31,055 nt of DNA from a virus: the IMG/VR virus record IMGVR_UViG_3300007346_000130, positions 1 through 31,055 of that record; one strand, 5' to 3'. Positions 407 through 10,955 of the stretch are shown here, one piece after another (position 1 is the first letter of the stretch; each line of letters starts with the position of its first letter). The position numbers and the translations under genes are program-made. Under the pieces are notes generated by a model that worked only from the letters and a program-made list of their open reading frames with translations, made no database searches and had not been told where the DNA came from.

Positions 407-474
407 CGCAAAGTGTGGTAAAAACTTGGCATAAAACTTGCATACAAAAAAATGCGAAATAATGAAAAAATATC

Positions 475-744: not shown

Positions 745-747
745 TGC

Positions 748-780
748 AAAAACCGTGCCAAGGAAGGTGCAGGTTTTTTA
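748..780 (+). terminator. intrinsic terminator, ACCGTGCC type
   Basis: AAAAACCGTGCC pairs with GGTGCAGGTTTTTT through G-U wobbles and one bulged A. A T-run follows, directly after the stop of the 532 gene. The 5' arm recurs at 1040 and 4038. Confidence 0.8.
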
Positions 781-1020: not shown

Positions 1021-1039
1021 TCCTTGGTTAGTGTGTTGC

Positions 1040-1075
1040 AAGAACCGTGCCAACTTGGTGCGGTTCTTCTTTTTG
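1040..1075 (+). terminator. strong intrinsic terminator, ACCGTGCC type
   Basis: AAGAACCGTGCC, 5-nt loop, GGTGCGGTTCTT, then CTTTTTG: a 12-bp stem including two G-U pairs. It is the clean version of the 748 terminator. Confidence 0.9.
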
Positions 1076-3469: not shown

Positions 3470-3541
3470 ATGGTACAACTATTTTCTAAACTTTTAATCG
3501 TCTTATACATGGTATCAATGATTCAGGAGAGTTTTTTATGA
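3470..3541 (+). CDS. 23-residue hydrophobic microprotein
   Basis: Very short but well signalled: AAGGAGG lies 10 nt before the ATG, and its stop overlaps the next start as ATGA. The peptide (VQLFSKLLIVLYMVSMIQES) could form one short membrane-embedded or amphipathic helix. Such tiny membrane peptides in phage early regions can modulate host membrane proteins; function here is unknown. Confidence 0.55.
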   Translation: MVQLFSKLLIVLYMVSMIQESFL

Positions 3542-3663
3542 GCAAGTCAACCGCTATCTTTTTATTTACGATCGGCTATTTAATTTATATTGGTTACGTT
3601 GTCACGCAAGTATCTGAAAGGATTAATAAAATAAAAACAATAACCATAACCAATAAACAATAA
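3538..3663 (+). CDS. 41-residue single-pass membrane microprotein
   Basis: ATG at 3538 overlaps the preceding stop and has GGAGAG 6 nt upstream. Residues about 5-25 (TAIFLFTIGYLIYIGYVV) form one transmembrane helix. The tail is basic and would be cytoplasmic or periplasmic depending on orientation. It pairs with the 23-residue peptide. A holin-like role is possible, but lysis genes are not usually placed in an early-type block. Confidence 0.6.
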   Translation: MSKSTAIFLFTIGYLIYIGYVVTQVSERINKIKTITITNKQ

Positions 3664-3699
3664 CAATTATATATAATACTAATATATATAATTATATAT

Positions 3700-3808
3700 A
3701 GGCGTAGGAACTGACTCACCGCCCCACCGGACACCGCCCCACCGTTCAGCATCACTGGACATCGTAGCAAAAAAATACCGCCAACAATTCTTGTCAGTTC
3801 CTATGCCT
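3700..3808 (+). ncRNA. structured element: 16-bp stem closing a C-rich loop
   Basis: A plus GGCGTAGGAACTGAC (3700-3715) pairs with GTCAGTTCCTATGCC plus T (3793-3808). The one non-Watson-Crick position is G-U, which favours RNA over DNA function. The 77-nt loop is strikingly C-rich and carries CACCGCCCCACCG twice (3717-3729 and 3732-3744). No clear promoter of its own; read-through from 3205 is possible. Confidence 0.5.
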
Positions 3809-3829
3809 CATATTGTTGGCACTCACTCC

Positions 3830-3853
3830 TGCCACAAAAAGTTGGCACTTTTT
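3830..3853 (+). terminator. terminator-like hairpin
   Basis: TGCCA, 8-nt loop, TGGCA, then CTTTTTC. Short stem but placed to end transcripts from the 3268-3663 genes and the structured element. Confidence 0.45.
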
Positions 3854-3914
3854 CTACTGACTATTCTTTAGACAGGTGTATAATTTTTTGACAGTATTTT
3901 TTTTAATTATGTTG

Positions 3915-3943
3915 TTGACAGTGCAGAGTTCTATCTGTATACT
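3915..3943 (+). promoter_or_regulatory. strong sigma70-like promoter with no gene downstream
   Basis: TTGACA, exactly 17 bp, TATACT. No ORF longer than nine codons with an SD follows before the terminator-like repeats at 4165-4203. Confidence 0.8.
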
Positions 3944-3950
3944 GTAATGT

Positions 3951-3982
3951 AAAGCCAAAACCAAAAGCCAAAACCTAAAGCC
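3951..3982. repeat. 13-bp tandem repeats (AAAGCCAAAACC)
   Basis: AAAGCCAAAACC at 3951-3962 and 3964-3975, followed by AAAGCC to 3982: about two and a half units. Iteron-like, just downstream of the orphan promoter. Confidence 0.6.
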
Positions 3983-4164
3983 ATATGGCATATATATTGC
4001 ATATACAATACTGATGCCACACAGGGGGGAGGGGGTCATGCAAAAACCGTGCCAAACCGGGGTTTAGGAGTCCCTGATTTGAGATTGGATACCTATGCCC
4101 GAAATACAGCGAGGATCATTTTTAACTTTTTCAAATACCCCCCACCCCTTTTTTTAAGTAGTTA

Positions 4165-4203
4165 GGGTCCCATATATAGAGGGTGGGTCCCTTTTTTATT
4201 TTT
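4165..4203 (+). terminator. GGGTCCC hairpin with T-run
   Basis: GGGTCCC, 13-nt loop, GGGTCCC (six G-C pairs flanking a U-U mismatch), then TTTTTTATTTTTT. Confidence 0.5.
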
Positions 4204-4259
4204 TAGGGTCCCATATTGGGTCCCATACGGGTCCCTTTAAAAAATTTTTTAGGAGTCCC
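4165..4259. repeat. GGGTCCC heptamer array
   Basis: GGGTCCC at 4165, 4185, 4206, 4218 and 4229, plus GGAGTCCC at 4252 (and at 4067). Two copies can pair as a hairpin with one U-U mismatch. 4165 with 4185 followed by TTTTTTATTTTTT resembles a terminator, as does 4218 with 4229. Could alternatively be protein-binding sites or part of an origin. Confidence 0.6.
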
Positions 4260-4599
4260 TACTTCTAAGGTCGGCTATTTTTAATTTTAGATTTAACTCG
4301 GAGGTCTGCATTGTCATGTATACGGCAAAGGTTTCAAAGATATACTCTTCATCTGCTAGTGAATCAAGCCCTACAGTGAACCGGTCACTTCGGATGTCCA
4401 TTTTTCTATTGTCAAATTCTACTTGACGGGAAAACCTGAAATAAGCAACGCCACTATGCCAATCTTCAGTAATTGTCAACAAGGTTCCAATAGAGTTTCT
4501 AAATATGATATAATTATTCTTGCTACTCAGGTGTTTGTAATCATATTTCTGAAAATAGTTCTCGTTCTCACGGATTGTATGGAAATCAACTTTCTTCAA
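4249..4599 (-). CDS. 116-residue protein, last gene of the leftward operon, unknown function
   Basis: TTG start at 4599 with GGAGG 6 nt upstream, overlapping the end of the preceding gene by 14 bases. Predicted alpha/beta: a charged N-terminal helix, beta strands around IIFRNSIGTLLTITEDW and VAYFRFSRQVEF, and a helical C-terminus (LNLKLKIADLRS). No family recognised. The stop lies at the edge of the GGGTCCC array. Confidence 0.75.
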   Translation of the reverse strand: MKKVDFHTIRENENYFQKYDYKHLSSKNNYIIFRNSIGTLLTITEDWHSGVAYFRFSRQVEFDNRKMDIRSDRFTVGLDSLADEEYIFETFAVYMTMQTSELNLKLKIADLRSRDS

Positions 4600-4813
4600 C
4601 GTAAACCTCCTTAATAGAGAATACGTGATGTATAATCTCTTCTACGGTCTGATTAATGCTTGGGTCCCAAAAATGCCGTTTTGTGTGCGTGTTAAGACCT
4701 TCAATGTGCTTTTCGGCTTCTTCCCTAGTATCGAACTGCTTGACACCCATATTGACAGAATTAAACCGCATAATATCTGTTTCGTTAGTAACCCAATATT
4801 TTTTAACTTTCAT
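4586..4813 (-). CDS. 75-residue protein, unknown function
   Basis: ATG at 4813 is preferred to a TTG one codon upstream; GGGGG lies 6 nt before it. Starts within the end of the preceding gene (11-base overlap). The fold looks like a small alpha/beta domain: strand (KVKKYWVTNETD), helix (TREEAEKHIEGLNTH), later helix (TVEEIIHHVF). Function unknown. Confidence 0.75.
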   Translation of the reverse strand: MKVKKYWVTNETDIMRFNSVNMGVKQFDTREEAEKHIEGLNTHTKRHFWDPSINQTVEEIIHHVFSIKEVYVEES

Positions 4814-6608: not shown

Positions 6609-9125
6609 ATGCCAATAAATGATAATTCAATTATAGTAGGTATTAAAGGCGATACTTCAGATATTGAACGAAAAATCTCTGAATTACAAAGAAAACTTCG
6701 GTCTCTGCGTGAAGGCGGTGCGCTAGGTCAGCTTGCGCAACAATATCGGTCAAGAGGTATGGAAGACCGTGCTAATCAGCTTGATCAATTTAGACAAAGA
6801 GAGCAGGTAAGGAATAGAAGAGAATTAGAGCAAAGCTTCAGAAATCAAGAAAAGAGTTTAGATAGCTTAAAAAGACATTATGATAATATTCAAAAAGGCC
6901 TAGATTCTATGGTCAAGGGCACTGATGCTTGGAAGCAAAAAAGTACTGAGGCAGCAGAGGTTTGGGATAAAATTGTAGGAAAAGCTGCTCAAGTAAAAGC
7001 TACATATCAGGAATTATTTCAAGGAAATGGTGCCGGTCTTCCGGGTCTGCCAATGCAATTTCAACAAGGTTTCGGTCCATTTAGTGCCAGAGATTTAACT
7101 CATATTGCTAGAAGTGGGCAAATGGGTGGTTTTGGTGGAGCCATGAAGGGTGTTGGTCGTGTTATGACCCCTGCTATGATGGCTCAACTTGGGGCTGGCA
7201 CTCTTGGAGCAGTTGGTGCTGGTATGGGTTTGTATGGGCAAGCCCAACTTCAAATTGGTACATTTGGAGAAAGAGTAACTACAGCAAGAGCTAGAAGTGC
7301 TCAAAATCTATTAGGTGAAGCCGCACAACTTAGAGAGCAAGGTAGAAGTTATGAACTAGAGCTTTTTGGTCAAGAAAGACTAAAAGCTTTAAATGCTGCT
7401 CAAAATAGAATGGCTAGAGAAAGAACGGCTGATAAAACGGGTCTTGGTGCTACTGTGTTGGGTGGCATTAGTGCTGGTGCTTTAACTGGCAGTACTGCTG
7501 GAGCTATTTATGGCTCTCCACTTGGGCCAGCAGGTATAGGTGCTGGTGCTTTAATTGGTTCTGCTGGCGGTGCCTTAGTAGGAGGTGTTTCAGCTTTTGG
7601 TGTCAGCATGATGAGTGACCGTAAGAGAAGTATGCTTTTTGATGAAGAAGGATATAATGAGCTTATTGGTAGTATTGGCTCAGATACATATCAACAACAA
7701 AGAAAGGCTCTTGAGGCTAGAAATTTTGAACTTTTAAATGCCAATAAATTCTTTGAAAAAAGACGGGGTAGAATGTTACAAACTCAAAGAGCTTTAGGTC
7801 TTTCTGACGAAGAACTTTTTGGTGGTGAAGAATCACTTTATAAAAGAGCTTCAAGAGCTGGTTTTACTGGTGATATTATAGAAGGCCAAGCACAGCAAAT
7901 ACTTCAAGCTGGTGGCACTACAGGTGTTGCCGGTGGTCAGGGTGGTATTTATGCTGCTCAGATGGCTAGAGGGTTAGACCTTACAAATGCTGGTAGTATA
8001 ATGGGCATGGTTTCTGCTACTAAAAATATGGGTGCTGAACAATCTAAAGATGAGGTCGTTAGAATGTTTGCAGAATCAGTTGCTCTTGGTCTTGATACTT
8101 CTGAAACTAGAATGTTTTTAGAAACAACTGCTCAAATGGCAGTTGAATCAGGTGGTAACTTTCAAGAAATTACCAGAATGTTAGGTGAAGGTGTAGAAGC
8201 ACTTCCAACATCAAGGGGGATTACTGCTGCCGCAAATGCCATGAATAAAATACGTGGTAAAAGTGGTGAGATGGGTGGTCTTTCTGGTCAATATGGTATG
8301 GCTGAACTTCAAACAGAAGAACTTACAAAAATGTTAGGTGGTGAAGCACTTGATATGGGTGAAATGTCCTATATTTTAGGTACTGATGTAACCAAAATTA
8401 CCAAAGACAATAAAGCAATCAGGTCATTTTTAAGAAAAAGAGGAATTGACCCTGATAGTGATGAAGCCCAAAAAATTATAGAGCAATTTAAAAAGGGTCA
8501 AATTAGAAAGACATATAGAACAGACGAAAGAGCACAAGCGGCTGAAGCATTTGATGAAACAAAAGAAGATTATGCTGAAGCTATGAAGTCTGGTGTATTA
8601 TCCCCAGAAGCAAAGAAAAAAGCTACCGAACAATATGAAGCAGCAGTTGGAGAGTATTCAAAATATGGTGCATTAGAAGAGGCTGAAGGATTTACCGGAA
8701 TGGGCTTGCCAGAACAGGAAGCTCAAGCTGGAATTGAAGGTGGCATACTAACTGGAGATAAAGGTCCAGCTCTAACAACTGGTATTGAAAAGAAACTAGA
8801 AGAAGCTACTAGGGCGGCTGATAAAAGGATTGCTAAATCAGCAGGAGACTTTGGTAGAAGCGTAGATAATTTGAATAAAAACATGACAAAACTTATGACA
8901 AGTTTTCAAAGTGCTGCCGATTCAAAAGCTATTGCTGACCTTTTACAAAAAATGGAAAATATTGCCACGGAAACCGGTAATACTACTGAAGCTTTTAAAA
9001 TTTATAAAGATACACTGAAACAAATTTTACAATCTGGAGGTGGAGGTGGTACTACTCCTAAGCAATCAGATGTTGATATTAATAAATATATGTTTGACGG
9101 AATCTTGCCAGCAGAAGGTGACTAA
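6609..9125 (+). CDS. putative tail tape-measure protein
   Basis: 838 residues, behind AAAAAAGG and a late-type promoter. The N-terminal 130 residues are coiled-coil helical (ISELQRKLRSLREGG and similar). Gly/Ala-rich hydrophobic stretches follow at roughly 170-215 and 280-330 (LGGISAGALTGSTAGAIYG). The rest is long, low-complexity helical sequence with GG spacers. Tape-measure proteins span the tail tube, set its length and often help DNA pass the inner membrane through such hydrophobic segments. The adjacent hub and spike genes support the call. At a typical 0.15 nm per residue the tail would be on the order of 125 nm. It lacks a visible peptidase or lysozyme domain. A different long helical structural protein cannot be excluded. 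Confidence 0.7.
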   Translation: MPINDNSIIVGIKGDTSDIERKISELQRKLRSLREGGALGQLAQQYRSRGMEDRANQLDQFRQREQVRNRRELEQSFRNQEKSLDSLKRHYDNIQKGLDSMVKGTDAWKQKSTEAAEVWDKIVGKAAQVKATYQELFQGNGAGLPGLPMQFQQGFGPFSARDLTHIARSGQMGGFGGAMKGVGRVMTPAMMAQLGAGTLGAVGAGMGLYGQAQLQIGTFGERVTTARARSAQNLLGEAAQLREQGRSYELELFGQERLKALNAAQNRMARERTADKTGLGATVLGGISAGALTGSTAGAIYGSPLGPAGIGAGALIGSAGGALVGGVSAFGVSMMSDRKRSMLFDEEGYNELIGSIGSDTYQQQRKALEARNFELLNANKFFEKRRGRMLQTQRALGLSDEELFGGEESLYKRASRAGFTGDIIEGQAQQILQAGGTTGVAGGQGGIYAAQMARGLDLTNAGSIMGMVSATKNMGAEQSKDEVVRMFAESVALGLDTSETRMFLETTAQMAVESGGNFQEITRMLGEGVEALPTSRGITAAANAMNKIRGKSGEMGGLSGQYGMAELQTEELTKMLGGEALDMGEMSYILGTDVTKITKDNKAIRSFLRKRGIDPDSDEAQKIIEQFKKGQIRKTYRTDERAQAAEAFDETKEDYAEAMKSGVLSPEAKKKATEQYEAAVGEYSKYGALEEAEGFTGMGLPEQEAQAGIEGGILTGDKGPALTTGIEKKLEEATRAADKRIAKSAGDFGRSVDNLNKNMTKLMTSFQSAADSKAIADLLQKMENIATETGNTTEAFKIYKDTLKQILQSGGGGGTTPKQSDVDINKYMFDGILPAEGD

Positions 9126-10955
9126 ATGGCTTATACTAAACTAATTGGTAAAAATTCAGAAGATTCGCACCAGATAAGCCCAGCTTATCTTTTGACTTTT
9201 ATTCGCTGGTCAAATAGAGATGTACTTAACCAAACTGGTGAAGATTTTTTAGCTGTAAGAAAACCACTTGTTGTAATTAACGATGCCATATCTATTCAGA
9301 TTCAATATTCTAAACAAAATCCCTTACAAGCGTTTTCATGTACTTTAAAACAAGGTGATTTAAACTATATGACAGCCGTTCACCCCGGCGATTATGTTTT
9401 AGTAAATATGGTAAATGACGAACCTAAAGCATTGGAATTAAGACAAAGAGCATTAGATTCAAAAGCTATAAATAGATATGATGATGGATTTAAAGGTGTT
9501 TTTAAAATTTCTGATGTTAGAATGACTTTATCAACCAATCCATCAAATGGTCAGAAAGAATATGTTGTAAGTGTTACGGGTAGAGCTTTTGATGAGTTTA
9601 ATAATACTCTTTACTTTAACCCTGCTTTAACTAATGAAACTGCGTTACAAAAACTTTTCCTTAATAACTTTAAAAACTTTCTGGATTTAATTATTCAGAA
9701 AGATAAAAATAACGTACAACCTCTTGTAAAAACAATTATTAAAAGAACTATTGGTGTAGGGATGGCCAAGGTAGCTAAACAAGACACTGTGCTTAACCAG
9801 ATACCGGCCTACAAACTCCCTTTGCAATTAGGTCAGCTTTTAAACATAGCAGAGGGCACCGTAGCTAATCCAGTTACTGGAAAAATGACCAATATTTTTG
9901 CTTCAGATTTGAATAGATATTATTTAGGCATATGGAATCCTAGTCCAAAAAAAGGAGTTGGAAAAATAACCTCAAAACCTCCAAAAGAAGGTTTTACTTC
10001 ATTTTTTACTAAAGACTCAGGTGAAGCAAACTTCTATAGTACAGCACTTGAGTTACCGGGTGCCAGACAGCTTGCATTGCAGGATTTTTCAAACATTAAA
10101 GTTTGGAGTATGTTGCAAGATTATGCAAATCCTGTACTTAATGAGTGTTATACTTGTTTTAGAACTGATAAAAATGGATTTGTTTATCCTAGTTTAATTG
10201 TTAGGCAAAAGCCTTATAATACACCAAAATATCTGAAGGCCAAGAAAAAACAAGATCATACGCAATTTTTAGATATTCCAAGATGGAAGATATCTCCAGA
10301 TTTAATTACAGATTTTAATATTGGCAGAAGTGATGCTGCTAGGGTTAATTTTGTACAGGTTTTTACTAGAAGTTTATCTGTTAACGATGCTTTAAATCAA
10401 GCCCAGCAGATTCAAAAAGGTAATTATGTTGTAGATGAAGATGATATAATTAGAAATGGCAGGAAAACATTTATTCAAAATTGTAATTACGATTATCCTA
10501 ATGCTCCAGACCAATATAAAGGAGATGCTTGGGCTGAACTTGTAGCTGATTGGGTTATGAATAACCATTTGAAGCTAAACGGAAGTATTTCATGTATAGG
10601 TATTGAGGACCCAATTTGCATTGGTGATAATTTAGAGTTTGATAGGGTTGTTTATCAAATTGAAAGCATTGCTCACAATATGGTTATATCTCCAGATGGT
10701 GCCAAATCATTTAGAACAAATATTTCATTATCTATGGGTATTGATGAAAGAAGTGATTCAAGCCTTACTGTTTATGGTGAAATGGATCATACCGATTCTC
10801 TTACTAAAAGAATTGAAGACTTTAAAAGAGAAAAGGTTTTACCGGGCTTTTCTGATACTCAGGATATTCCGGGTAGAGCAAATGGTGAAGAAGTTACAGA
10901 AACTAGACAGAAGAGTTTTACAAATCCAAACTCTTTAAATAAAGGAAAGAAATAA
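9126..10955 (+). CDS. putative baseplate hub / tail protein (gp27/gp44-like)
   Basis: 609 residues, starting immediately after the tape-measure stop, with AAGGTGA as SD. The N-terminal third looks like the hub barrel pattern (SIQIQYSKQNPLQAFSCTLK, a PGDYV loop, GVFKISDVRMTLS, VSVTGRAFDEF). The C-terminal part has the typical closing barrel: an ICIGDNLEF strand, VYQIESIAH, then ISLSMGI. Hub proteins form the ring between tube and central spike. Order (tape measure, hub, spike) is the classical myovirus arrangement. Family-level sequence identity cannot be checked here. Confidence 0.65.
   Translation: MAYTKLIGKNSEDSHQISPAYLLTFIRWSNRDVLNQTGEDFLAVRKPLVVINDAISIQIQYSKQNPLQAFSCTLKQGDLNYMTAVHPGDYVLVNMVNDEPKALELRQRALDSKAINRYDDGFKGVFKISDVRMTLSTNPSNGQKEYVVSVTGRAFDEFNNTLYFNPALTNETALQKLFLNNFKNFLDLIIQKDKNNVQPLVKTIIKRTIGVGMAKVAKQDTVLNQIPAYKLPLQLGQLLNIAEGTVANPVTGKMTNIFASDLNRYYLGIWNPSPKKGVGKITSKPPKEGFTSFFTKDSGEANFYSTALELPGARQLALQDFSNIKVWSMLQDYANPVLNECYTCFRTDKNGFVYPSLIVRQKPYNTPKYLKAKKKQDHTQFLDIPRWKISPDLITDFNIGRSDAARVNFVQVFTRSLSVNDALNQAQQIQKGNYVVDEDDIIRNGRKTFIQNCNYDYPNAPDQYKGDAWAELVADWVMNNHLKLNGSISCIGIEDPICIGDNLEFDRVVYQIESIAHNMVISPDGAKSFRTNISLSMGIDERSDSSLTVYGEMDHTDSLTKRIEDFKREKVLPGFSDTQDIPGRANGEEVTETRQKSFTNPNSLNKGKK

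What the first reader, a model, noticed from the sequence alone, without database searches (positions are those of the whole stretch)
3915..4203. Consensus promoter driving no gene: candidate 250-nt ncRNA
A perfectly spaced TTGACA/TATACT promoter is followed by 13-bp tandem repeats, a palindrome, a G-tract complementary to a later C-tract, and GGGTCCC hairpins with a T-run, but no credible ORF. This looks like a strongly transcribed structured RNA, or an origin primed by transcription.
Basis: partly seen in the sequence, partly recalled or inferred. Interest (0 to 1): 0.65.

Follow-up and report, generated by a model that had tools for sequence, protein, structure and literature searches.

The report
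Phage promoter facing sigma-54 promoter site
The gene-free stretch with a strong promoter in this uncultured phage also holds, on the opposite strand, a perfect docking site for the host's special sigma-54 RNA polymerase; it is one of about 14 such sites packed into the phage's early region, and similar clusters turn up in many other uncultured phages, where I found no earlier description of them.

Summary
A TTGACA-17-TATACT promoter (3915-3943), 13-bp repeats, palindrome, G/C tracts and GGGTCCC hairpins with a T-run are all there, with no convincing ORF. A ~250-nt terminated RNA is plausible, but the interior folds no better than shuffles (z -1.3), and no origin evidence exists.

4039-4055, read on the minus strand, is a perfect sigma-54 (RpoN) -24/-12 site, TTGGCACGGTTTTTGCA, facing the sigma-70 promoter. 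It belongs to a dispersed set. The 129-kb relative G001 has 8 perfect and 6 one-mismatch sites in its early region, all intergenic, against 0 perfect in ten random genomes. No RpoN or sigma-54 activator domain was found in the phage records. A second promoter type (TTGACN-17-TATACT) sits near these sites.

A scan of viral contigs returned at least 120 stretches with paired sigma-54 sites. Thirteen of 14 whole contigs checked hold 5-16 perfect sites, mostly clustered (backward-pattern control: 1). So sigma-54 site arrays recur in uncultured phages.

Best reading: a two-sigma regulatory island, in which host sigma-54 polymerase controls or opposes a sigma-70 transcript. Sequestration of sigma-54 is the main rival. 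The site identity is well supported; the function is inferred.

The parts
3915..3943 (+). sigma-70-type promoter TTGACA-17-TATACT; predicted start near 3950; member of a TATACT promoter class
   Evidence: conserved in G001
3951..3983 (+). 13-bp tandem repeats AAAGCCAAAACCA, 2.5 copies (3.5 in G001)
3986..4019 (+). small AT-rich hairpin, overlapping the palindrome GCCATATGGC (3980-3989); one pair lost in G001
   Evidence: fold z -2.2; alignment
4024..4035 (+). G-tract GGGGGGAGGGGG, shorter in G001
4039..4055 (-). perfect sigma-54 (-24/-12) site TTGGCACGGTTTTTGCA, reading leftward; predicted start near 4028
   Evidence: start rule of 19 bp past the motif centre from PMC4591121
4057..4239 (.). 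most conserved block of the region (2 differing columns in 183 against G001)
4138..4148 (+). C-tract CCCCCCACCCC, can pair with the G-tract or with AGAGGGTGGG at 4178-4187
4164..4203 (+). terminator-like hairpin AGGGTCCCAT..GTGGGTCCCT followed by T-run
4165..4235 (.). five GGGTCCC copies: tandem terminator arms, or possible enhancer (UAS) 137-207 bp upstream of the predicted sigma-54 start (inference)
745..761 (-). perfect sigma-54 site, just past a + gene's stop codon, within its terminator-like hairpin
1037..1053 (-). perfect sigma-54 site, 5' arm of a strong + strand terminator
426..442 (+). two-mismatch sigma-54 site, counterpart of the one-mismatch site at G001 13473

Best explanation
The interval is a two-sigma regulatory island in the early region of a phage. 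A consensus sigma-70 promoter (3915-3943) makes a short untranslated RNA of about 250 nt that ends at the GGGTCCC hairpin and T-run. A perfect sigma-54 site on the opposite strand (4055-4039) lies in its path. Host sigma-54 polymerase would bind there as a silent closed complex and fire leftward only when a host AAA+ activator is active. It would thus block or oppose the rightward transcript, or make a convergent antisense RNA. The site is one of about 14 in this phage's early region. Shown by sequence: both promoters, their conservation, the phage-wide set, similar arrays in other viral contigs. Inferred: binding, activity, blocking, the RNA.
For: The 17-bp motif was found first as a dispersed repeat and only then recognised as YTGGCACGNNNNTTGCW. 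Window: 3 perfect sites, 0.01 expected. G001: 8 perfect and 6 one-mismatch sites in its early region, 0 perfect in ten Markov genomes; backward control 0; none inside called genes. Flanks carry almost no information, so these are not copies of a longer repeat. Orthologous sites: 0 of 55 changes at key bases against 22 of 330 in flanks (P = 0.055). TATACT promoters lie within 130 bp of a sigma-54 site in 8 of 9 cases (4.6 expected, P = 0.02). In other viral contigs, unselected positions beside the searched pattern reproduce the known consensus. Closed-complex behaviour, and repression where a site overlaps another promoter: PMC4591121.
Against: No transcript or binding data. The host is unknown, so its RpoN is assumed. 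No leftward gene lies downstream of the 4055 site. E. coli work found no roadblock effect from intragenic sites (PMC4591121). The site in G001 has one mismatch (TTGGCATGTTTCTTGCA). Two of the three window sites coincide with terminator arms, which could explain part of their sequence.
Confidence: 0.5

Rival explanations
1. Sigma-54 sponge: the sites mainly capture host sigma-54 or its polymerase as phage copies accumulate, shutting down sigma-54 dependent host responses; their orientation and downstream sequence hardly matter.
For: 9 of 14 G001 sites face against the early genes. Other viral contigs carry packed arrays with sites 26-56 bp apart, tandem or inverted, too dense for independent promoters. 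Site spacing shows a weak 10-bp period (P about 0.008, several periods tried).
Against: Copy number and affinity unknown. Fourteen sites may be too few early in infection. Some rightward sites sit 72-95 bp upstream of genes, as promoters do.
Confidence: 0.25
2. Ordinary untranslated RNA gene: a sigma-70 promoter makes a ~250-nt regulatory RNA, and the sigma-54 site is incidental to it.
For: Promoter and terminator-like hairpin bracket the interval and are conserved; 4057-4239 differs at 2 of 183 columns.
Against: Fold not significant (z -1.3); the 5' half varies in repeat copy number and loses a hairpin pair; no Rfam match.
Confidence: 0.15
3. The motif is only part of intrinsic terminators shared by early operons and resembles sigma-54 sites by accident.
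For: Window copies at 745 and 1037 lie in terminator hairpins.
Against: Most G001 copies have no T-run hairpin; the spacer bases vary while both promoter boxes hold; chance of 8 perfect matches is negligible.
Confidence: 0.05
4. Replication origin primed by transcription from the 3915 promoter.
For: AT-rich tracts, short repeats and a promoter without a gene lie together.
Against: GC skew follows gene direction and does not switch independently here; no initiator site identified; repeats vary in number.
Confidence: 0.05

Closest known systems
Sigma-54 (RpoN) dependent promoters, -24/-12 type (as described in PMC3844500 and PMC4591121)
   Same: YTGGCACG-N4-TTGCW boxes and spacing; spacer bases free; intergenic; possible upstream repeats where enhancers lie.
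   Different: Many sites in the early region of a phage genome in which no activator domain or RpoN DNA-binding domain was found; most face against the genes; close to consensus sigma-70 promoters.
Opposing-direction sigma-54 binding sites in bacterial chromosomes (PMC3844500, PMC4591121)
   Same: Sites oriented against the local genes, with antisense RNA or transcriptional interference suggested as roles.
   Different: Those sites are scattered and intragenic in cells; these are clustered, intergenic and viral.
Mycobacteriophage L5 stoperators (from memory, not tested)
   Same: Short asymmetric sites repeated between early genes, thought to hinder transcription.
   Different: Bound by a phage repressor, with a different sequence; here the sequence is that of a host sigma factor site, mostly facing against transcription.

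Membership tests
Sigma-54 dependent promoter | GG at -24 and GC at -12 with fixed spacing (YTGGCACGNNNNTTGCW) | tested here: met
   4039-4055 minus strand 13 of 13; set in G001 and G002
Sigma-54 dependent promoter | Both boxes kept while spacer varies between relatives | tested here: inconclusive
   0/55 key changes against 22/330 flank, P 0.055; against spacer-type positions not significant
Sigma-54 dependent promoter | Binding by Esigma-54 and activation by an AAA+ enhancer-binding protein | not testable with these tools
   No host known; phage records lack PF00158 and PF04552 matches
Sigma-54 dependent promoter | Upstream activator sites about 80-200 bp away | tested here: inconclusive
   GGGTCCC repeats lie at about the right distance but also form terminator arms
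Small non-coding RNA gene | Promoter and terminator bracket, no conserved ORF | tested here: met
Small non-coding RNA gene | Stable structure or covariation | tested here: not met
   z -1.3; one hairpin pair broken in G001; too few substitutions for covariation
Transcription-primed replication origin | Replication start, skew switch or initiator sites | tested here: inconclusive
   No skew switch beyond gene direction; initiation not testable here

The most novel reading that the evidence does not exclude
Many phages carry dedicated arrays of sigma-54 sites that act as sponges or silent roadblocks, seizing the host's sigma-54 polymerase during takeover; this interval is one element of such an array, coupled to an opposing sigma-70 promoter.
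Probability: 0.3. Interest if true: 0.88.

Novelty: new variant of a known kind. Interest (0 to 1): 0.7.

Why it matters
Sigma-54 runs stress, nitrogen, motility and development programmes in many bacteria and is unusual in staying silent on DNA until an activator acts. Phages that carry whole arrays of perfect sigma-54 sites would mean that viruses repeatedly exploit or disarm this system. The arrays are easy to find by sequence, so the idea can be tested at once across phages whose hosts have or lack rpoN. I found no description of such arrays in the papers searched, which cover open-licence papers only.

Tried and rejected
Rfam at gathering and at permissive thresholds: nothing real (the SmY hit at E 0.71 is noise). 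BLAST of the region against named phages: none. Small ORF 4049-4165: no relatives and start frameshifted in the window. GGGTCCC pattern in viral contigs: many unrelated hits; reused as an unselected background for sigma-54 density. More distant relatives of the early region: searches with two early proteins found only the same two records. DnaE relatives with other early regions: three distant virus records and Myxococcus phage Mx1 have no perfect sigma-54 sites. Host from genome contigs: one 30% hit in a Lachnospiraceae MAG, not informative. Orientation of arrays relative to the next gene: 37 of 55 co-directional, not discriminating because most phage genes run in one direction anyway.

Full report
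WHAT THE WINDOW IS. The window is a 31-kb virus record (G000). Two relatives were found: IMGVR_UViG_3300034418_013526 (50.6 kb, G002, 99.9% identical) and IMGVR_UViG_3300005747_000012 (129.3 kb, G001, mostly 93-97% identical). G001 encodes a DnaE-type polymerase, terminase-like and helicase proteins, portal, sheath and a GroEL-like protein. Its nearest named relative is Myxococcus phage Mx1 (polymerase 33% identical over 98%). The host is unknown. The finding lies at the end of an early-type region of small rightward genes, next to a leftward gene set that ends at 4249.

THE OBSERVATION. The region from 3540 to 4240 is well conserved in G001; 4057-4239 differs at 2 of 183 columns, whereas the 13-bp repeats and the G-tract vary. 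Just past 4252 the two phages diverge completely. The RNA fold is unremarkable (z -1.3), but the hairpin at 4164-4192 with its T-run looks like a terminator. A short untranslated RNA is therefore plausible, though nothing shows that it is made.

THE PROMOTER IS ONE OF A CLASS. Scanning G001 and G002 showed two kinds of strong promoter in the early region. One kind has AATAAT or TATAAT and runs, after a short leader, into a gene with GGAGG and ATG. The other has TTGACN-17-TATACT, and most copies lack an immediate gene. The finding's promoter is of the second kind. Near these promoters a 17-bp motif, TGCAARAANCGTGCCAA, recurred.

THE MOTIF IS A SIGMA-54 SITE. Read on the other strand the motif is YTGGCACGNNNNTTGCW, the -24/-12 promoter of sigma-54. 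The window has three perfect copies against 0.01 expected, one of them at 4039-4055 inside the finding. G001 has eight perfect and six one-mismatch copies in its early region, out of 16 in the whole genome; ten random genomes had no perfect copy, and the pattern read backwards gave none. None of the 14 lies in a called gene. The flanks share almost nothing, so this is not a duplicated longer repeat. Between G001 and G002, 0 of 55 key bases changed against 22 of 330 flanking bases (P = 0.055); the contrast with spacer-type positions inside the motif is not significant on these numbers. Eight of nine TATACT promoters lie within 130 bp of a sigma-54 site, 4.6 expected (P = 0.02). No RpoN DNA-binding domain or sigma-54 activator domain was found in the phage records, so any sigma-54 and activator would come from the host.

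DIRECTION. The site at 4055 reads leftward, face to face with the sigma-70 promoter; the start rule of PMC4591121 puts its start near 4028. Nine of the 14 G001 sites face against the early genes. Several rightward ones sit 72-95 bp before a gene, as a promoter would. The two other perfect window sites fall in terminator hairpins just after + genes. The GGGTCCC cluster lies 137-207 bp upstream of the predicted leftward start, where an enhancer could sit, but it also forms the rightward terminator; I cannot separate the two roles.

BEYOND THIS PHAGE. In 119 of them (0.99 Mb, without G002) there are 389 sites, of which two per locus are there by selection, while four control patterns give 0-4; unselected viral loci of 1.06 Mb have 2 perfect sites. 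Sixty-six of the 120 stretches hold three or more sites. Of 14 whole contigs checked, 13 hold 5-16 sites, in most contigs gathered in one stretch, with one backward control match in all. Positions that the pattern did not fix (Y before TGG, purine after CACG, T and C before TTGC) reproduce the known sigma-54 preferences (comparison with the consensus from my own knowledge). Some arrays are tandem, others inverted pairs. This is strong sequence evidence that sigma-54 site arrays recur in phages. Searches of the paper library found no description of them; the library is incomplete.

MECHANISM. Sigma-54 polymerase binds its promoter without opening it until an AAA+ activator acts (PMC3844500; PMC4591121), and sigma-54 bound over another promoter can repress it (PMC4591121). 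The simplest model here is a two-sigma switch: the sigma-70 transcript from 3950 runs into a bound sigma-54 complex, and activator-dependent firing would send a convergent transcript back. A roadblock is uncertain, since E. coli intragenic sites showed no such effect (PMC4591121). The sponge model explains the dense arrays of other phages better than this phage's scattered sites. I rate the site identity at about 0.85, the two-sigma island as described at 0.5, and the sponge as the main role here at 0.25.

LIMITS. All evidence is sequence. Early timing is inferred from gene layout. G001 and G002 are close relatives, so conservation tests are weak. Gene calls in metagenomic loci are mechanical.

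Noticed in passing
window 3700-3808: Very stable 16-bp-stem hairpin (z -6.0, none of 200 shuffles as stable) just upstream of the finding; its loop has a 15-bp direct repeat that G001 has lost, and one stem change keeps pairing as G-U. Role unknown, perhaps the 3' end of the early operon.
   Followed up: partly
L155-L274 (viral contigs), e.g. L206, L212, L165, L196: Dense arrays of perfect sigma-54 sites in unrelated uncultured phages, tandem or inverted, with a weak hint of helical spacing.
   Followed up: partly
window 4249-4802: Sequence is replaced in G001 exactly at the edge of the conserved non-coding block, between matching flanks: an accessory gene swap.
   Followed up: no
G001 7990-8550 (L132:7990-8550; G002 9070-9630): A long intergenic stretch with five sigma-54 sites, two of them forming an inverted pair, and three TATACT promoters in both directions: the densest part of the set.
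   Followed up: partly
L137:4172-5956 and L136:6714-7706 (G001): The phage encodes a divergent GroEL-like chaperonin and a ClpP-like protease.
   Followed up: no
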